From Labia minor (taxonomy: Eukaryota; Arthropoda; Insecta; Dermaptera; Spongiphoridae), in assembly GCA_963082975.1 (NCBI GenBank), contig OY720349.1, positions 48,279,962-48,343,961 on the forward strand: DNA of 64,000 nucleotides. The letters are read 5' to 3'. Every line of letters begins with the position of its first letter. Within the stretch, counting starts at the first letter, position 1. Positions 8,600 to 18,800 of the stretch are shown here, in pieces. The position numbers and the translations under genes are program-made. The notes under the pieces are model-generated. The model saw only the letters and a list, made by a program, of their open reading frames with translations. It had not been told where the DNA came from and did no database searches.

Positions 8600-11358
8600 C
8601 GGAAAATTCAAAAAGTCATAGACTTATTCAAGAATTTGATGATATTTAGACACATTTATTGGACATATCCTGGCATGATTCATTAAATGAATGAAATTAA
8701 AATGAAATCGATATATTTTTTATTTATAATTTAAAAGTAAACACTGATGAGATAAACTTATGAAAATTTATTGAATTTCTAAAAATGATTCAGTAGCAAA
8801 ATGAATTCTCCTAAAGAAGTAAATGAGTTTTATTTATAAAGAAAATAAATCTCAAGCGACGTCTAATATAAATATTATTCTTAAACCCTTCTCTGCCCTT
8901 CCTTTAAGAAATAATGGATCAGCAATCAACCATGATAAAACTATATTCAGTTAATGAAAATATTTATAAGTCAATCAAAAAGGAAACTTGAAACGATTGC
9001 TTTATTAGTTATTTCTATAAGAAATATTGGAAAAATGTATCATCAATAGAATTTTATTTCATTTGAAACAAAACAAAAATATAATAATAATAAAATGAAT
9101 AACATTTTATAAAATGCTATATACTAGGAATTAATAATACCTAGTACCTTGAAAATTCTTTATAAGATGGCAAACAAAATTAAAAAAAACAAAAACAAGA
9201 CATTTCCTCATTTATCTTCATGTTTAGTTTTTTTTTTTTTTTTTTTTTGACTAAAAAAGTACTCTTTTTGTTTTTAAAACTATTAAACCATTTTCCGCTT
9301 TACATTTCTGAATTAATATTATATTTTATTATTTTCCCAAACTTCACAAAAACTATCTATTCAAATAAGAAAAAAAAATGTTTTAATAAATATTTGCTTT
9401 AAAAAGTATCATTTATTTTTAATCTAATTTTTAAAATTTATTTTTGTTTTCTCTCTTTTCTAGATGCAAAAGAAAAATTCTCGTTGGTCTTTTGTTTATG
9501 AGTCTTAAATATAGTAGAAAAATCTTTTAATTTTCATAACCACATTTATTATTCAGATTATATAATGAAAAAGGTCATTAAATAGACATTAATATGAAAC
9601 AGAGAATGAGAATAAAAAAAAAAACATTTCTTTTAACGCCTGTTCAAAAATTAAATCAATTTGAAATTTAGCAACGGAAGAGAGTTGAGTTGTGAGTGAA
9701 CTTAATAAGTCTCGCCTTCCAAAAAGCCCAACAACAACATTTCTTTTTTCCATTTTTATTGTTCGTTTAATTTCAAATGGTGAGAAACATTTAAGACTCG
9801 GAGAAGGGAGAAAAAACAATAGACGGAATGACTTGCTTTAAGGAGGATCCGCTGTCATTTGTTTAACTATAGAGAAAAAAAAAACGGAGTGATCCAGTTG
9901 TGAGAAGTTAATTATGATAGTCTTTATGGAGAGAGCTGCTGCCAAGCTGCATTATCGTAATTCCGGGCATGTTACCCGGGCAAACTTCGCGTCTCATCCC
10001 ACCAACATCTTGAAAGTTGTTCCCAACAAACTTGCGAGTTGGGAAACTGGGTGAACATAGATTATTGCCTCTTTTGTTCAATAAGTGCTGAAGACGGTAT
10101 TTTATGGTCAAGAAAAGAGCAACTGGCCTCAATGCGCATGTCGTTTGTGCCAATATATGAACCCCCTTGGATTCAGTGCAAATTTGCCAACATAAAAGCA
10201 TAATAAATATCTAATAAGAATTTAAAGATAAAATCTAAAAGGGAATGAATAGTGAAGTGTGTTGAAATGGGTGGAGGAAAGAGGAAAAATCCATTAATTC
10301 AATTAAACTATTGAGATGAGTTGAAAAAATTCTTTAAAGTTTGAATTCCAATGGAAATAAAAAATATCTTTCTGAACTGAAAGTGGATTTCTCTCATTTA
10401 TACAAGTAGAAATCAATTTATTTTATCATTTTTGTTTGTTTTAAAATTATATTTATTGAAAATAGTGTTAATCTCTTAATTTTCTAAAATAAAAATTTCA
10501 GCTGTTTGTAATAGTCACTTACAGAGTAGTAGAAATTTAAATTTTTTTTTGTAAGATTCAAAAATTTTTTTTTCTTTTTTTATTATTAAAAATAACAAAT
10601 GCTAATTTCATTTTTTTTTAATTTTCTAATACGACTATAAACTTAGATTTCGGGATGAATTGGGAAAAAAGACTATGATTATAGTTTTTTAAATATTTTA
10701 TTATTTGTTTTAAAATAAATATTTTAAAAATTATTATTGTTGAAATTTTCAATGAATTCGTTTTCGAAAATGACTGAATTATGTGCGTTCATGTTTAATT
10801 TATTTAATATTCACTATTATTATACTATTTCATCAATATTTCTTTAAATTATTTTTTTATTAAAATTTGAATAATGTGATAATTCCAAATTGTTATTTTT
10901 TTACATTATCATTTTATAAAACAAAAATATAGTACAACATTCATTATTACAGAAAAATAAATTATAAATAAATTAATTACAAATTCCTTTCAAGAGAATC
11001 AATTTCAAGTTTCGAATTTGTAATACATTCAATCAGAATCAAGAAAAAAAAAAATTTAAGATAGTTCTGTTTTTTAGATTCTGTATATCAATGAATACAT
11101 CCCAAGATCCGGGAATCATGGAACAAAAGCGTTCACACTCAATGAATGGATAATTTCTACAAAGACAAGCTTGTTGGGTTAAATTGAACCGTTCCAAATA
11201 GCAAAGATTTGACTAACATAGAAAAAGCCTAATAATGTTCACGTTTATCCGTGGAATTCTCTTTGCTTTTGAATGTTACAAAAAAAAAATATAATAGATG
11301 TTTTTTTATCATTGGGAAAGGAAGAAATGGAATTAAAAGAATGATATATATATATATA
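8600..11358. other. AT-rich non-coding DNA with a GC-richer patch at 9890-10210
   Basis: Largely AT filler with poly-T and poly-A runs. The block at about 9890-10210 is clearly different: non-repetitive, near 45% G+C, with a CCGGGCATGTTACCCGGG palindrome-like segment. A 97-codon open frame on the minus strand covers it, but the product has no recognisable domain. A conserved non-coding element or an exon is possible. Confidence 0.5.
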
Positions 11359-11900
11359 TGTAGGGGATTTCGTTGTCTAGGGGTTGTTTAGCAAAAAATA
11401 TCTGTTTTGTTTAAATGGTTGCAAAAATATCGTTTTATTGAATAAAGATGAACAAGATAAAAAACAGTGTAAAAATAAATGAAAATGTAACTTCTTCGTT
11501 TCTTGAATACTTCTGGCGATGTACAAAGGACTGTAAAGTGTCGACTGTAAAACTCTTAACTGTAAACTGACTGAAATCTGACTATATACTTGAACTTAAA
11601 CTGAAACTGTACAACTAAACTCGAATCGTGTCCGTGTCCTTTTTAAAAGGAAGTCCAAACAGCTGGAACTCGGTTGCTATTGGTCGGTGGCGTGGAGTGG
11701 GAGAATGGCGGCGACGGTGATGGTAGCTCATGGTGGGGAGGCGGCGACGGCGTCTGGGGCGCTCGCTGCTTGGAGCGGCGTTGAGAGGAAGCACCAACTC
11801 CGATGATATTGTGGTTGAGAATGGCCGACCCTGAGGCAGTAAGATGTGCCAGGCTTTTGATGATTCGGACGGTGATGAGCCAAAAGGCTCCATTCCCACA
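11359..11900 (-). repeat. 3' LTR of the retrotransposon
   Basis: A 542-bp copy that starts TGTAGGGGATTTCG and ends ATTCCCACA on the plus strand. Its inner (U3) half is GC-rich and encodes the last ~94 residues of the element's ORF, so the stop codon lies inside the LTR. On the minus strand a CAATAAAAC polyadenylation-type signal lies near 11434-11440. The polypurine tract just upstream is weak (GCAGGACGACCGAA). Confidence 0.92.
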
Positions 11901-14900
11901 TTCGGTCGTCCTGCGATGTATTCGGCCTCGAATACGTTAATCTTCTTTTCCTTATCTCTCCACTTCGCCTTCGTTTTTCGATATTTATCGATTTTTTTCT
12001 TCACGTAAAATAGTCTATCTTGTGATTTGGATAAATCATTTATGCCTGTTTCTAAATTTAAATCCACATTAAAATCTTCATTTTCTTTATTTAAAACACT
12101 ATCTTCAGTTTCAACTTTACTTGCAGTTTGTGTTTTATAATTATCGTTAGAACTTTCTTCTTTAATTTCGTCTAATTTTAAAAGGACATTTGCTAAATTT
12201 AATTTTGTTTCTTTATTTCCTTCATTTGCTTGTTTTTCATAAATCACTTTTGCCAATTTTAAAACTTTCCAGGCGAATTTTAAATTAGTAACGTCATCTT
12301 CTTCACTGTCTTTCTCACCATCTTCACTTTCAGGCATTGTTTCATCAAGATAAAAAATTTTATCATTGGGATCAATCTCTACTTCACGAATTGTTTTATT
12401 TCGATCTTCTGAAGTGCTTTCATCCTTATCAACTTCCAGTGATTCATCGTCATTTACTTTATCCTCTTCATTAACTTCACTTTCGGTCTTTTTTTCATTA
12501 TCAGTCGTTAGAGATTCTTTATCTTCATTCTTTTCTTCTTTGACTTCCTGTTTTTCAGTCTCTCCTTTTTTATTAGATTCTTTCTTTTCAGTCTCTTCTT
12601 TTTTATCAGATTCTTTCTTATCAGTCCCTTCTATTTTCTCCGATTCTTTCTTTTGAGTTTTTTCTTTTTTATTAGATTCTTTCTTTTCAGTCTCTTCTTT
12701 TTTATCAGATTCTTTCTTATCAGTCTCTTCTATTTTCTCCGATTCTTTCTTTTGAGTTTTTTCTTTTTTATTAGATTCTTTCTTTTGAGTTTTTTCTTTT
12801 TTATTAGATTCTTTCTTTTCAGTCTCTTCTTTTTTCTTAGATTCTTTCTTTTCAGTCTCTTCTTTTTTATTAGATTCTTTTTTTTCAGTCTCTTCTTTTT
12901 TATCATATTCTTTCTTTTCAGTCTCTTCTTTTTTATCAGATTCTTTCTTATCAGTCTCTTCTTTTTTATTAGATTCTTTCTTTTCAGTCTCTTCTTTTTT
13001 ATCAGATTGTTTCTTATCAGTCTCTTCTATTTTCTCCGATTCTTTCTTTTCAGTTTCTTCTTCTTTTTCAATTACTTCTTTCTTTTCTGGTTCTTCTTCT
13101 TTTCCTACCTCCATCTTTTCATTTTCACTCTCTTCTTTCTTCTTCTCTTCAGAAGAGGGCTCTTTTTCTTCTTTAACTTCTGGTTTGGTTTCTTCTGCCT
13201 TTTTCACATCTTTTTCCTCTTTAGTTGTTTCTTTTTCTTTTGGTGTTTCATCTTTTTTTTCTATGGATTCATTTACTTTAGCTTCTTTCGTATCAATTTT
13301 CTCTGTTTTCTTTTTAGTTTGGGATTCTGTTATATTGTTTAAAGTGAGTTTTTCACTATCCTCTTCCTGTATCTTGTTTATGTATAGAGAAAGATTCGTC
13401 TCTGTTGAACTTTTTATCTCGGTGTTCATTATCTCTGTTTCTTCGGTTATCTTCTTTAAAGTTATTCCTTGGGGACTTAATGTTGTTTCAGCTTGTACTA
13501 GGAGATCACTACCGATGATGACTGGTTCATTTATTACTTCTGACGGGACAACATGAATTGGAACATCATAGCTGGATGAGTCAATTATGATTGGTGTCTG
13601 GAAGTATCCTAATGGTTGAATTTTAACTTTTCCTAGTCCGGTGAACACTTTTTTGGACTCTGTGAGGTCGGGATGGTTTATTTCATGCCATGCCGATTCG
13701 CTGACTAATGTTGCACAGGCTCCGGTGTCGATTAATGCTTTCATATGGTACCCGTTAAGCTGGATGTTTTTATGGTAATTTGTTTCACCATGATATGACA
13801 CAATGTTGATATTTCTGTTTATGGACTTTTTCGGGCATTGAGGTGACTTGTGCCCAAATTCGTTGCAACTGAAGCACTTAGTCCCTTTGTCTTTGAATGG
13901 ACATGTATTTGTCGAGTGTTGTGGGTCCCCACAATTGAAACATCGTGTTTTTATGACTGGCTTTGTTGATCTGATCTGGTTGGGTTTTTGTTCTTCCTGT
14001 CTTCTGGCGGGTGTAACCAATTCTTGAGGTTTTGTTTTTCTCATTCGAGCGCATATTTTAATTTTGCGCTTGAAAACCTCTAAACTAGATGCATCATGCA
14101 AGAACATTTTCTGGTTTGGATCAGGTATTCCATTTATGACGTAATCCATCAAGACCTGATCGCTTGCATTTACTTGATTTGCCAATTCTTTCATTCGTAG
14201 ATAATAAGCAAAGGCGTCTTCATTTTTCTCTATCATGGAGTTTCCGAGTTGTCTGAAAATGTCCGCTGCGTTAACTTTTTCAGAAAATTCTTTTAGCAGA
14301 ATACTTTTGAGCTTCTTCCAGGAGTTTATATTTTGTTCACTGTCCACCAAAGTTTTTGCTAAGCCTTGAATTGATCGTTTGGCAAGTATCAGCACGTGTC
14401 TGTCGTCCAAATCGTAGAGTGAAGCGGCTTCGTCGATTTCAGTGACCCATTTATTGATTGGATACTTGGTTGATCCATCGTATTTCTTAATTGTTGATTC
14501 GATGTCTTGTATTTGGACGTGTCTTCTGTAGTTGTTATGACTCGGTATAGGTTGTTCGGTTCGTGTGCTTCGAGCCGGAGAATGAACTATTTCCAGTTCT
14601 TCTTCTTCTTCTTCTTCTTCATCATCATCTTCTTCTTCATCATCATCATCATCTTCGTCCAGTGTACATAACCAAGATAGAATTTTACCTCTAATTAGTT
14701 CGTCGCTGTCTTGCTCAGGAAGATTGAGTATATTAGATGTTTGATGTAGTTGCTTACTGGATAGTTTTTCCGTTAATTCTTCATATTTTTTCTCATATTC
14801 TTCAGAACCTTCAACAAAGTTGAACCCTTCAAAGTTGAGTAGGGTTTTTCTATTGAGGCGGCATGTTGCGTCACCGGTTATTATTGTTTTTAGTCCTTTC

Positions 14901-14965
14901 AATTCATTTGGTTGGGCCTGCATTATGTTTTTTGCGATTTTTGGAAAACGAGCCAATTTCGACAT
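11615..14965 (-). CDS. Gag-protease polyprotein with DEK-like N-terminus and NASP-like C-terminal segment
   Basis: An 1116-residue uninterrupted ORF; the ATG at 14965 is the first in frame and follows a repeat-rich leader. Residues 1-100 resemble the SAP-containing core of the chromatin protein DEK, notably FEGFNFVEGSEEYEKKYEEL at 45-64 and a SAP-like helix pair at 68-100. An Asp/Glu run follows at 103-124. Residues ~145-320 look like a retrotransposon capsid. Two CCHC knuckles (CX2CX4HX4C; CFNC and CFSC) lie at ~340-378. A retropepsin-type aspartic protease has DTGA at ~410 and IIGSDLL at ~482. Residues ~637-810 are sixteen 11-residue Lys/Glu units. An acidic stretch then leads into NLKFAWKVLKLAKVIYEKQ (~888), resembling the SHNi-TPR of the histone chaperone NASP. 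The final ~94 residues come from the LTR. Pol domains are absent. DEK and NASP homologies are by eye and unproved; Gag, knuckles and protease are secure. Confidence 0.85.
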   Translation of the reverse strand: MSKLARFPKIAKNIMQAQPNELKGLKTIITGDATCRLNRKTLLNFEGFNFVEGSEEYEKKYEELTEKLSSKQLHQTSNILNLPEQDSDELIRGKILSWLCTLDEDDDDDEEEDDDEEEEEEEELEIVHSPARSTRTEQPIPSHNNYRRHVQIQDIESTIKKYDGSTKYPINKWVTEIDEAASLYDLDDRHVLILAKRSIQGLAKTLVDSEQNINSWKKLKSILLKEFSEKVNAADIFRQLGNSMIEKNEDAFAYYLRMKELANQVNASDQVLMDYVINGIPDPNQKMFLHDASSLEVFKRKIKICARMRKTKPQELVTPARRQEEQKPNQIRSTKPVIKTRCFNCGDPQHSTNTCPFKDKGTKCFSCNEFGHKSPQCPKKSINRNINIVSYHGETNYHKNIQLNGYHMKALIDTGACATLVSESAWHEINHPDLTESKKVFTGLGKVKIQPLGYFQTPIIIDSSSYDVPIHVVPSEVINEPVIIGSDLLVQAETTLSPQGITLKKITEETEIMNTEIKSSTETNLSLYINKIQEEDSEKLTLNNITESQTKKKTEKIDTKEAKVNESIEKKDETPKEKETTKEEKDVKKAEETKPEVKEEKEPSSEEKKKEESENEKMEVGKEEEPEKKEVIEKEEETEKKESEKIEETDKKQSDKKEETEKKESNKKEETDKKESDKKEETEKKEYDKKEETEKKESNKKEETEKKESKKKEETEKKESNKKEKTQKKESNKKEKTQKKESEKIEETDKKESDKKEETEKKESNKKEKTQKKESEKIEGTDKKESDKKEETEKKESNKKGETEKQEVKEEKNEDKESLTTDNEKKTESEVNEEDKVNDDESLEVDKDESTSEDRNKTIREVEIDPNDKIFYLDETMPESEDGEKDSEEDDVTNLKFAWKVLKLAKVIYEKQANEGNKETKLNLANVLLKLDEIKEESSNDNYKTQTASKVETEDSVLNKENEDFNVDLNLETGINDLSKSQDRLFYVKKKIDKYRKTKAKWRDKEKKINVFEAEYIAGRPNVGMEPFGSSPSESSKAWHILLPQGRPFSTTISSELVLPLNAAPSSERPRRRRRLPTMSYHHRRRHSPTPRHRPIATEFQLFGLPFKKDTDTIRV
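12540..13065 (-). repeat. 33-bp minisatellite coding for 11-residue Lys/Glu units
   Basis: About sixteen tandem 33-bp units encode variants of EETEKKESNKK (EETDKKESDKK, EKTQKKESEKI and others). Variants recur in blocks, which indicates expansion by duplication of multi-unit segments. All units keep the frame. The opposite strand reads as long Phe/Leu/Ser-rich open frames, an artefact of the repeat. Confidence 0.9.
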
Positions 14966-15327
14966 CTTTAATATATTTTTATTTCTTTAATCTTCACTGT
15001 ATTATATCTTGTATTTTCTTTCTTGATGATTATTCACAAAAAAAAAATCTTGAAAGTGAATAAGTTTTCAATCTTAAATCTTGAATCTTTTCCTTGACAA
15101 TTATTCACAAATATCTTGACAGTAAATAAATCTTCAATCTTGAATCTTGTATCTTTTTCGTAAGAATTATTCACAAAAATCTTGAAAGTGAATAAGACTT
15201 GAATCTTGAATCTTGTATCTTTTCTTGAAGATTATTCACATAAAATCTTGAGAGTGAATAAGTCTAGGAATCTTCTTTCGCCCGAACGATAAACGAGTTG
15301 TTTTCAATCCCGGACGAGCCTCCAATT
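14966..15327 (-). promoter_or_regulatory. Retrotransposon 5' leader with four tandem ~63-bp repeats
   Basis: Between the primer-binding site and the ATG, from about 15008 to 15270, four diverged copies of a unit of about 63 bp recur. Each has ATTATTCAC, a CTTGAAAGTGAATAA-type block and runs of AATCTTGAATCTTG. Tandem leader repeats in LTR elements can be binding-site arrays or packaging signals; the Drosophila gypsy insulator is one known case. No function can be read here. Confidence 0.7.
15307..15324 (-). other. Primer-binding site, tRNA-Pro type
   Basis: Three bases inside the 5' LTR, the minus strand reads TGGAGGCTCGTCCGGGAT. This is one mismatch from the 18-base complement of the 3' end of tRNA-Pro (TGGGGGCTCGTCCGGGAT), the primer known for murine leukaemia virus. 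It fixes the element's orientation. Confidence 0.85.
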
Positions 15328-15869
15328 TGTAGGGAATTTCGTTGTCTAGGGGTTGTTTAGCAAAAAATATCTGTTTTGTTTAAATGGTTGCAAAAATATC
15401 GTTTTATTGAATAAAGATGAACAAGATAAAAAACAGTGTAAAAATAAATGAAAATGTAACTTCTTCGTTTCTTGAATACTTCTGGCGATGTACAAAGGAC
15501 TGTAAAGTGTCGACTGTAAAACTCTTAACTGTAAACTGACTGAAATCTGACTATATACTTGAACTTAAACTGAAACTGTACAACTAAACTCGAATCGTGT
15601 CCGTGTCCTTTTTAAAAGGAAGTCCAAACAGCTGGAACTCGGTTGCTATTGGTCGGTGGCGTGGAGTGGGAGAATGGCGGCGACGGTGATGGTAGCTCAT
15701 GGTGGGGAGGCGGCGACGGCGTCTGGGGCGCTCGCTGCTTGGAGCGGCGTTGAGAGGAAGCACCAACTCCGATGATATTGTGGTTGAGAATGGCCGACCC
15801 TGAGGCAGTAAGATGTGCCAGGCTTTTGATGATTCGGACGGTGATGAGCCAAAAGGCTCCATTCCCACA
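15328..15869 (-). repeat. 5' LTR of the retrotransposon
   Basis: The second 542-bp LTR copy, TGTAGGGAATTTCG to ATTCCCACA on the plus strand. One substitution (position 8) distinguishes it from the 3' LTR. On the minus strand a TATATAG motif near 15551-15557 could serve as a TATA box, and a CAATAAAAC signal lies near 15403-15410. The 94-codon open frame here (15584-15868) only mirrors the C-terminus encoded in the 3' LTR. Confidence 0.92.
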
Positions 15870-18800
15870 TATATATTTATTTCATTTTTTTAAAAAAAAA
15901 TAATCAATAATGTAGATGGAATTATTTTATAGTAATTAAAACAAAGATTTAAGCCATAATAATAATTTCCAATTGTATTAAAATCTTTTGTTTGAGCTAT
16001 ATTATATATCAAATTATTATTTTGAGATTTATTAAACACATTAATGAATAAAATAAAAAAAAATATAATATGTATGTAGTATGTAGTACTATTAAATATA
16101 TATTTAGAATGTAAAAATAACAAAAATGTATATATTGTTATAAATTTACATAAATATTTTTATAAATATGTGTCCTCAACTTAAATATATCTGACAACAT
16201 TTTTTTAAATTAATAATAACAATGGGTCCTATTTCCTTGATACTTGCTTTTGTAAAAAAAAAATAATTTATTTAGATAATTTATTATTCTATCAAATTAT
16301 TCGAAGTAATTGCAATTATAGAAATAGATTTAGATTGTATGTGATTTAAATCCAAAATGTGTAAATTGTTTTTTTTTTCAATTGTAGGTTTGACTGACAT
16401 TCTGACATCTATTTGTTGAACTTTTTCCAATAGTTGGTGAGATTCATTCAAGCAAATATAAATTAATAGTAGGAATAAAACGCGACTGATATTTGACCAA
16501 ACAAAATTTAATTAATTTTCTTTTTAAAACATGCAAATAAATTCTGTCAAAATCAAAAAAAAGTTTTAACAGTTTTTGTTTTTTAGTTTTCTTTATATTT
16601 TGTTGTAGGAATATATATATATATTCCTACATATATATTTCTCGATAGATTTTGACTAGACGGGATGTTTTAAAAATTCCAAATGAAAACCTCACATTTT
16701 TATTTCCTTTTCATTTCAAATTTGTCTCACTTGGCTGCAAGGGGAGAAGCATGAAGAAATATCAACCCCCTAACCCCACCAGTTCTAGAATTCAATAAAA
16801 TATATCGAGACAATAGAGAGAAAAAGAAAGAAAAAGAAAAAAGTTAGTAAGTTGAAACATACAGTGAGAGAGAGAGAGAGAGAAAGAGAGAAAGAGATAT
16901 AGGGATGAAGGGGGAAAAAGAGAGATTTAGAGAACAAACTTCGGGATGAAAATATGCCTAAAGGAAGAAAGATCAACATTATCATTAATTTAAAGAAAAG
17001 TTCAGGCATTAACTTTGGAATTTCGCCAGAAAATGTTATAAAATTTTTTTTATATCATTTACAAATAGTAATTATTAAGGGTGGAAGAAGATAAATATTT
17101 TTTTCTATTAGTCCTCCCTTTAAAAAAAAATCAAAAGAACTATGGACAAAGTTTCAATGTGGTTTACCAAACAGAGATTAAACATAATCCAACGCCCCTC
17201 ACTTAGTCCATGATAATATTCATAATTTTACAAGTATAACACACCCATCTAAATTATAAATCACAAGTTTTTTTTTTTTAATGGCATAAGCTATTAACAA
17301 GTTTTTCATAACATTTAAAATATTTTCTCCTATTTCTAATAATAATAAATTTTATATGCATTATACAAATTAATAATAATTTGTACAAAAATATGTTTGT
17401 CCTATCAAAAGAGGAAATGATAGAAAATTGTATTTAACATTTGAAATGAATGAATCAAACGTTAATCTACGGATTTCTCTTTTATGATTGGGTTTCCTTC
17501 CGTTTTCAAATCGTTTTAAATCGGCCGATGTTATTCATTCAAATCGTTATCAAAAGGATAAAAAAATGTAAATAAAGGAATTATGAAGTTATAATGTTAA
17601 CAATTTATTGGATGGAAAATAATAAATGAATGATATTAAGTATTTCTTGAAATAGCTTGAAAAAATTAAATTTAAAATAATTATTTTCATTTTGTTGACA
17701 TCAATATTTGAATATACTGGAGTAATTGGATAACTCACTTAAATAAGAAATATTCTAACTTATAATTCCAAATATAAGGGACAGAATCTTCAAATAAACA
17801 TTAACCCAAAAATAAACTAAAAAAAAAAAATGTATCAATATCTATCTATTTACTTATATATACTCGTATTATAATATATGACAAATTTAAAAAATATCTA
17901 AATATTATAAAATTTGTCTATATTAAATTATTTTCTAAATGATTTATTTGGTGGACTAGTTTTGAATTTCTATTTTTAGTTTTTCTAAAATTATTTTATA
18001 TATTAGGTACTTATCATCTAAAATACACATAATAATGAAGCACTGTATAGTTAGAGGCCACTCTTAATTATAGTATTAAAAAAAATTATATAATAGATAT
18101 AAAAATAAAATTAATATTAAATTAATAATAAAAAGATTCGGTATTTATTTTTATCTAAACATTAAACAAGTGACAGTACTGTAATACTATATATAAATGT
18201 TGATACGTTAAATTTAGACAAATATATTTATAAAAAAAGCACCGACACGTGCATTTATGAGTTAAAAGGCTACGTCACCCCCTCCATCATCCCAATGACA
18301 TTCCCTTCAAAAGTTGTGAAATTTGGGGGAGAATATTTTATAATATGATATAAATGTGATTTTTCAAAATAAAAATAATCAAATAAATGAGAAACACTTT
18401 CATTTAATTTTAAATCTATTTTAATGGATATTATATGAAAAGATTATCAAATAAAATTATAAAAATTCATTAATTAATTTCTTTTTAAATGAAAAGTCAA
18501 ATTTGTATTTTTTTTAAATATAAGGAGTAGATTTAATAATAATTCTTTAACATTAATTGATTTTCTTATAAATAAGCAATCAAATATAAATTTCTATCTT
18601 CAATTTTAAATGACGGGTTGTCAATAGATTGATATTTGGGTTAAATTTTTTTTTTAGGGTTCTATAATTAATTAATTCACCAATGTTTGCTATGTTTATA
18701 TGATTATATTAATGCAATTATTTATTAGTTGATATTCATTTTGAAAATAATTTAAAAATTGTACCCTATTAAATTTGGACCTCAAATTAATTTGAATGAT

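What the first reader, a model, noticed from the sequence alone, without database searches (positions are those of the whole stretch)
14600..14965. A retrotransposon Gag with a DEK-like chromatin-binding N-terminus
Residues 1-100 of the 1116-residue ORF do not look like Gag. They match by eye the conserved core of DEK: an L..L...I hydrophobic lead, F.GF.F..GS..Y.KK (seen as FEGFNFVEGSEEYEKKYEEL) and a SAP-like helix pair (KQLHQTSNILNLPEQDSDEL, IRGKILSWL). An acidic run follows, as in many DEK proteins. DEK binds chromatin and acts as a histone chaperone. Host-gene capture by an LTR element is known for retroviruses, but a DEK module on Gag is not one that I know. It could target the element's particles or cDNA to chromatin.
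Basis: partly seen in the sequence, partly recalled or inferred. Interest (0 to 1): 0.88.

Follow-up and report, generated by a model that had tools for sequence, protein, structure and literature searches.

The report
Retrotransposon carrying DEK and NASP pieces
A young jumping element in an animal genome makes a capsid protein that begins with the domain of the chromatin protein DEK and ends with a piece taken from the host's histone-chaperone gene NASP; many shorter copies in the same genome keep just these two parts.

Summary
ORF residues 4-99 match human DEK's SAP domain (PDB 2jx3, E=4.4e-4 alone; E=5.9e-14 with a profile of eight relatives without the window). It is not a private capture: DEK-like N-termini sit on Gag of full Gag-Pol relatives, of two named ant proteins, and of several element families in this genome. 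Close relatives conserve the domain about as well as capsid, but DEK's DNA-contact residues are largely lost: 1-5 of 9 stay basic in 18 element domains, 7 of 9 in the host's own DEK. Descent is well supported; DEK-style nucleosome binding is not.

The larger find lies outside the given coordinates. The element is a young LTR element (LTRs differ at 1 of 542 sites) without pol. After the protease its ORF enters a 389-residue segment captured from the host NASP gene (87% nucleotide identity over 289 codons). The commonest close relatives (56 of 80 rows by frame length) are short; the 28 distinct short copies tested by motif are DEK-NASP fusions without Gag zinc knuckles, and four read in full lack capsid and protease too.

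The parts
15328..15869 (-). 5' LTR (TGTGGG...CTACA), 542 bp
   Evidence: Direct repeat with 11359-11900; 1 of 542 sites differs
15307..15324 (-). primer-binding site TGGAGGCTCGTCCGGGAT, 3 nt after the 5' LTR; resembles the tRNA-Pro site of murine leukaemia virus (that label is recalled, not from a call)
   Evidence: 30 of 30 loci L001-L030 have a site of this kind at the same place
11615..14965 (-). single ORF of 1116 aa: DEK domain, acidic run, capsid, two zinc knuckles, protease, NASP segment, C-terminal segment, LTR-encoded tail; no RT or integrase found
14660..14965 (-). DEK-type SAP domain, ORF residues 1-102
14594..14659 (-). acidic run, ORF residues 103-124
14006..14518 (-). Gag capsid region, ORF residues about 150-320
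   Evidence: tblastn of the 13 relatives; homologs
13829..13942 (-). two CCHC zinc knuckles, ORF residues about 342-379
   Evidence: Read directly from the sequence; second knuckle is a Pfam zf-CCHC match at E=0.016, below cut-off
13478..13768 (-). retropepsin-type protease, ORF residues 400-496 (LIDTGA)
   Evidence: PF13975 E=3.4e-7, PF00077 E=2.2e-6
12140..13306 (-). segment captured from the host NASP gene, ORF residues 554-942 (host NASP residues 204-508): K/E-rich region expanded as 33-bp repeats, then part of a TPR unit
   Evidence: Host gene at L089; 289 aligned codons, 87.2% nt and 78.5% aa identity; human NASP in the PDB at E=9.9e-6 with the window's own letters
11903..12139 (-). C-terminal segment of unknown origin, ORF residues 943-1021; parts recur in other elements of this genome
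11618..11902 (-). 95-residue tail of the ORF encoded by the start of the 3' LTR
11359..11900 (-). 3' LTR, 542 bp
11355..11358 (.). possible target-site duplication TATA; the other copy would be 15870-15873; weak, lies in AT repeats
   Evidence: Flanks read

Best explanation
SHOWN: the first 102 residues are by sequence a DEK-type SAP domain, which forms the N-terminal domain of Gag in a lineage of Ty3/gypsy LTR elements. The window copy is a young, pol-less member whose protease is followed by a segment of the host histone-chaperone gene NASP. Among 80 near rows in the same genome are 6 frames of 1398-1399 aa, 14 of 704-1123 aa (the window's class) and 56 of 457-619 aa; the 28 short copies examined join the DEK domain to NASP without the Gag zinc knuckles. 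The loci examined of all three kinds share LTR sequence and primer-binding site. INFERRED: the pol-less kinds are copied in trans by the long-frame relatives. Short copies arose by deletion between GAA-rich runs of the acidic tract and the NASP repeat. The DEK domain works as a folded N-terminal docking domain of Gag, in the place of a matrix domain; I put about 45% on docking to chromatin or a nuclear factor (25% by DEK's own DNA-binding mode) and about 35% on particle assembly or RNA/protein contacts. The NASP piece keeps the acidic region and part of a TPR unit, not the whole histone-binding TPR fold, so it may add loose histone binding or merely ride along.
For: DEK homology. Lineage: 4 of 9 Gag relatives have it, and the 4 new hits all do (the fifth hit is the query itself). 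Own genome: 150 scored matches of 260 candidates, with several distinct Gag families read. Constraint: in close pairs the domain is about as conserved as capsid and far more than the linker (domain/capsid/linker 78/80/34% for P0004-P0010, 77/83/45% for P0012-P0013). NASP capture. Short copies: 33 loci, 28 distinct copies; best local LTR-LTR alignment within a copy (100-493 bp) identical in 27 of 28. Joint in GAA runs in the two copies looked at; shared primer site in 30 of 30 loci.
Against: DEK's DNA-contact residues are largely lost in element domains. DEK's histone-binding region (residues 52-68) lies before the aligned part, and the C-terminal DEK domain is not found in the ORF. In distant pairs the domain is less conserved than capsid (window against relatives 25-32% against 32-40%). 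The NASP tail since capture shows 20 nonsynonymous and 4 synonymous differences over 95 codons (ratio about 1.1), so no protein-level constraint is seen there. No structure model was obtained. Trans-mobilisation is not tested; the loci held of the 1398-aa frames reach only the start of RT. Frame length is a proxy for element kind outside the loci read, and 2 of the 14 middle frames (704 aa) have their NASP part in a separate frame.
Confidence: 0.8

Rival explanations
1. The DEK domain tethers particles or cDNA to nucleosomes through DEK's own DNA-binding mode.
For: Homology over the whole part of DEK that binds dyad and linker DNA. The K124 position is Arg in 18 of 18 element domains, K125 basic in 12 of 18, R107 basic (Lys) in 11 of 18; four of nine positions are basic in the window. 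Gag-borne chromatin tethers are known in foamy virus and MLV p12 (PMC9040877, passages seen).
Against: R116 is basic in 3 of 18 element domains, R153 in 0, K158 in 4, R168 in 0; charge reversal of R107/R116 or of R153/K158/R168 drastically weakened DEK's nucleosome binding, while K124/K125 mattered less (PMC12263440 section 10). Net charge is near zero.
Confidence: 0.25
2. The domain is only a generic SAP domain; the DEK label is over-precise, since sister elements carry plain SAP.
For: P0003 and P0006 carry Pfam SAP above cut-off, P0008 below it. The three SAP kinds are not one clade in the RT tree (AU p=0.009), so the N-terminal domain has changed more than once.
Against: The match covers the whole 100-residue DEK domain, including the region before the SAP box. 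No other SAP protein is significant (best E 0.12 or worse for non-DEK chains), while the plain-SAP piece of P0003 finds SAP proteins and not DEK. SAP-type N-termini score near shuffles against DEK (8, 104 and 34 of 2000 shuffles as high).
Confidence: 0.07
3. The NASP-like part is convergent low-complexity K/E repeat and not a capture.
For: Most of it is K/E-rich 33-bp repeat; BLAST without masking also gives low-complexity matches of about 20% from unrelated frames (L035, L038).
Against: Non-repetitive parts match: 48 codons at the 5' end with 3 differences, 95 codons at the 3' end with 24 differences; overall 87.2% nt identity over 289 codons; NASP in the PDB at E about 1e-5 from the window's own letters.
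Confidence: 0.01
4. The NASP piece is a neutral passenger, spreading only because the short elements are easily copied.
For: Nonsynonymous to synonymous ratio about 1 in the tail; truncated TPR.
Against: The frame stays open over 389 codons, many one step from a stop: if all 111 differences arose on the element branch the chance of no stop would be about 0.0002, 0.015 if half, 0.12 if a quarter. The estimate is crude.
Confidence: 0.45

Closest known systems
DEK (human DEK SAP domain, PDB 2jx3, 8kcy, 9l1x)
   Same: Same ~100-residue domain by sequence, including the region before the SAP box
   Different: No match to DEK's C-terminal domain; nothing aligned to its histone-binding region; most DNA-contact positions not basic; fused to Gag
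Ty3/gypsy Gag-Pol relatives with N-terminal SAP (P0003 from Nesidiocoris tenuis, P0006, P0008)
   Same: Same order: small domain, acidic linker, capsid, knuckles, protease
   Different: Plain SAP in place of the DEK-type domain; full pol
NASP (host gene at L089; PDB 7v6p)
   Same: Host residues 204-508 present at 87% nt identity over the aligned codons
   Different: Fragment; ends inside the SHNi-TPR unit (host residues 494-530); repeats expanded; in frame with Gag-PR or with the DEK domain
Host-gene-carrying LTR elements, such as maize Bs1 and captured genes in plants (recalled; search listing only)
   Same: Host coding sequence inside an LTR element
   Different: Here the captured gene is a histone chaperone, joined to a DEK-type domain that the lineage already had
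TR-GAG elements of plants (recalled; search listing only)
   Same: Non-autonomous LTR element that keeps Gag coding
   Different: Adds NASP; shorter relatives drop Gag and keep DEK-NASP
Foamy virus Gag chromatin-binding site, MLV p12 (PMC9040877, passages seen)
   Same: Gag-borne chromatin contact, if the DEK domain binds chromatin
   Different: The foamy virus site is a peptide on the nucleosome acidic patch, not a SAP-type domain

Membership tests
DEK SAP domain | Sequence match over the whole domain, pre-SAP region and SAP box | tested here: met
DEK SAP domain | Fold as in 2jx3 | not tested
DEK SAP domain | Basic DNA-contact residues | tested here: not met
   1-5 of 9 basic in 18 element domains (4 in the window); 9 in human, 7 in host DEK
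DEK protein (whole) | C-terminal DEK_C domain (PF08766) | tested here: not met
   Not found in the ORF; present in the host gene L052
Ty3/gypsy LTR element | LTRs with TG..CA, primer-binding site | tested here: met
Ty3/gypsy LTR element | Gag and protease related to Ty3/gypsy Gag-Pol | tested here: met
   Pfam of relatives
Autonomous LTR element | RT, RNase H, integrase | tested here: not met
   No Pfam pol domain in the ORF and no tblastn match of relatives' pol in the window
NASP | SHNi-TPR and full TPR fold | tested here: not met
   Segment stops at host residue 508 while SHNi-TPR is 494-530; Pfam finds none in the element piece

The most novel reading that the evidence does not exclude
Short LTR elements encode a working two-part chromatin protein, a DEK-type domain joined to the acidic part of NASP. 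It acts at the elements' own chromatin or cDNA, for example by loading or stripping histones to escape silencing or choose insertion sites, and has driven their spread: a selfish histone chaperone built from two chromatin proteins.
Probability: 0.15. Interest if true: 0.93.

Novelty: new variant of a known kind. Interest (0 to 1): 0.8.

Why it matters
A chromatin-protein domain as a standing N-terminal part of Gag in an element lineage did not turn up in the papers I could search (listings only). It makes the role of the matrix-position domain of these Gags testable. The NASP capture is recent enough that donor, captor and short derivative are all in one genome, so the steps from host gene, to element gene, to a short element without Gag can be read directly.

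Tried and rejected
Homolog search with residues 1-102 of a 400-aa window piece found nothing (71 candidates, none at E<=1); words from a relative (P0004) were needed. Two scans of viral contigs found no relative; phage records none for the Gag-PR stretch. Trees of Gag core and RT disagree on whether the DEK or the SAP kind is older: in the Gag tree SAP kinds nest among DEK kinds, weakly; in the RT tree, which cannot hold the window, DEK kinds are one side of a branch at 58/36. Left open. Positive selection on the first 50 codons of the DEK domain (11 nonsynonymous to 2 synonymous between L004 and L014; 14 to 1 between L024 and L050) was considered; L004 and L014 are identical in the other compared parts, which points to exchange of 5' ends, so I do not claim selection. 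The best DEK_C match, L051, was followed first and dropped: it runs in frame into phosphatase-like sequence (by eye, recalled), and no SAP exon was seen in the 29 kb fetched around it.

Dropped before counts: P0013 from the NC-PR column and cut short in the Gag tree, as it leaves Gag there; one row at 88% identity with a stop inside (C5:8005966) and the rows under 84% identity from the frame-length count. Rows of that count and were typed by hand.

Not done: structure prediction and fold search (job queued, unfinished); a count of NASP genes by PF10516 (not completed).
Full report
What was claimed and what is there. The ORF is on the minus strand, 11615-14965, 1116 aa. Pfam sees the protease (residues 400-496) and a weak zinc knuckle, and no family in the first 100 residues of the whole ORF. 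Against PDB chains the first 122 residues find human DEK first, E=4.4e-4, aligned from residue 4 to 99. With a profile of five N-termini the E-value is 4e-14 and the best non-DEK chain 0.12; with eight relatives and the window left out, 5.9e-14 against 0.5. Shuffles never reach the observed score (0 of 2000). The reading by eye was right.

Relatives. A search with Gag-PR (residues 130-510) gave nine proteins at E<=0.01 among 2027 candidates. Four (P0001, P0002, P0004, P0005) begin with the DEK-like domain; P0003 (Nesidiocoris tenuis) and P0006 have a Pfam SAP domain above cut-off and P0008 one below it; P0007 and P0009 have neither. A search with the domain of P0004 gave itself and four more, all DEK-like: P0010, P0011, P0012 (Solenopsis invicta, LOC105204179) and P0013 (Linepithema humile). 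Nine of the thirteen carry RT, RNase H and integrase (P0010 by its precomputed domains); P0004, P0011 and P0012 are shorter frames that reach RT, and P0013 has no pol. A net acidic linker follows the domain in the nine DEK kinds and in the three SAP kinds. In close pairs the domain is about as conserved as capsid while the linker is not (78, 80, 34% and 77, 83, 45%); in distant pairs it is less conserved than capsid (window against relatives 25-32% against 32-40%). So the domain is a kept part of Gag in this lineage.

Own genome. The window lies in a 604-Mb assembly of unnamed species; an insect is likely from the named relatives, by inference. The window's DEK domain has 150 scored matches of 260 candidates at E<=1. 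The 80 rows at 84% identity or more typed divide by frame length into 6 of 1398-1399 aa, 14 of 704-1123 aa, 56 of 457-619 aa and 4 shorter; one more row at 88% has a stop inside and was left out. Further families at 35-50% identity show the order DEK domain, acidic linker, capsid where the fetched stretch holds an intact frame; L031-L033 are broken or cut short. The host has its own DEK gene: L052 holds a SAP exon (40% identity to human DEK over 89 positions, E=7e-22), an acidic open stretch and DEK_C. In a tree of 20 domains human and host DEK group at 99/99 apart from the 18 element domains; the tool warns that one long branch, P0005, may be misplaced. This argues for an old acquisition and against a recent one from this host's DEK; the number of acquisitions is not settled.

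Does it bind chromatin like DEK? In the DEK-nucleosome structures SAP domains sit on the dyad and touch both linkers through R107, K111, R116, K144, K124, K125, R153, K158 and R168, and residues 52-68 hold the histone acidic patch (PMC12263440, abstract and sections 9 and 10 read). The element domain begins near DEK residue 85, so the aligned part lacks the acidic-patch region. At the nine positions human DEK has 9 basic residues, the host DEK 7, the 18 element domains 1 to 5. By position, of 18: R107 11, K111 7, R116 3, K124 18, K125 12, K144 5, R153 0, K158 4, R168 0. Thus one linker contact and part of the dyad contact persist, and the second linker contact is largely gone. Net charge is +10 (human), +6 (host, a piece without the first helix) and -5 to +5. 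Descent with most of the DNA-binding surface lost is the best reading; another surface could still bind DNA, RNA or a chromatin protein.

The element. LTRs of 542 bp (15328-15869, 11359-11900) differ at one site; a second difference in the longer alignment lies beyond the CA end. A primer-binding site starts 3 nt inside. Relatives' pol matches nothing in the window. The ORF runs into the 3' LTR for its last 95 residues.

The NASP segment. Residues after the protease are rich in K and E with a 33-bp repeat, but the end of that region matches NASP: with the window's own letters, 7w5m (named a TPR-like protein; a plant NASP by recall) at E=6.8e-6 and human NASP at 9.9e-6, and human NASP at 3.2e-5 with the piece of short copies. 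A genome search with the window's piece found 105 matches, one of them, at 71%, in a 707-codon open frame. That frame holds a NASP of 701 aa: SHNi-TPR at E=2.3e-15 and human NASP at 1.5e-47. Window residues 554-942 (12140-13306) correspond to host residues 204-508, with 289 aligned codons, 87.2% nucleotide and 78.5% amino-acid identity, and repeats expanded in the element. Over 95 non-repetitive codons there are 20 nonsynonymous and 4 synonymous differences; over 48 codons at the 5' end 2 and 1. The capture is thus older than the insertion (1 LTR difference) but recent beside the DEK acquisition. A second DEK-Gag family, L045, carries NASP sequence from about host residue 117 on (low complexity included); whether this is one capture exchanged between families or two is open.

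Short elements. Eight loci and 25 read by motif as DEK+NASP without the zinc-knuckle motif of Gag; these 33 loci are 28 distinct copies. The best local LTR-LTR alignment within a copy, 100-493 bp because loci are cut, is identical in 27 of the 28; the exception is the copy of L025/L082 at 98.3-99.7%. Four frames read in full pass from the DEK domain through a short acidic run straight into the NASP repeat, without capsid or protease, and in the two looked at as codons the joint lies in GAA/AAA runs, as expected from a jump of reverse transcriptase between purine-rich repeats (inference). In one search, 57 of the 74 strongest rows have frames of 450-620 aa, 14 of 880-1130, and 3 shorter. The primer site is present in 30 of 30 loci L001-L030, which include all three kinds.

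How it works, most likely. Long-frame relatives supply the enzymes and particles; the window kind may add DEK-Gag-PR-NASP protein; the short kind is copied in trans. The DEK domain is a docking domain in the place of matrix. Of these steps only the anatomy, the shared ends and the recent copying are shown. Whether DEK-NASP protein does anything is unknown; an open frame over a stop-prone stretch argues mildly for use, the substitution ratio near 1 against it.

Novelty. Searches for SAP domain or DEK together with Gag, retrotransposon or transposon terms listed nothing relevant, nor did NASP with LTR retrotransposon; only listings were seen, and most subscription journals are missing from the library. 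Gene capture by LTR elements and non-autonomous Gag-bearing elements are known kinds (listings). I rate this a new variant of a known kind, with unusual cargo.

Noticed in passing
P0013 (Linepithema humile protein): A public gene model joins a DEK-Gag N-terminus to a fatty acyl-CoA reductase-type domain (Male sterility protein, PF07993 E=1.3e-63); either a model artefact or exon capture.
   Followed up: no
L001-L030, about locus position 1130: Two forms of primer-binding site among close relatives: TGGAGGCTCAGTCCG[TA]GAT in 22 of 30 loci, and a tRNA-Pro-like form (label recalled) or variant of it in the other 8, including the window copy.
   Followed up: partly
ORF codons 1-50 of L004, L014, L024, L050: The start of the DEK domain differs strongly between copies that are identical or nearly so further on, suggesting exchange of 5' ends or fast change.
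   Followed up: partly
L045, L046: A different DEK-Gag family; L045 also carries NASP-derived sequence after its protease.
   Followed up: partly
window 11618-11902: The element's ORF continues through the start of its own 3' LTR, so the LTR adds 95 residues; several short copies share this tail.
   Followed up: no
G000:C5:65615601-65623205: Four short copies in a row, spaced 2121 bp apart, as if by unequal exchange between LTRs.
   Followed up: no
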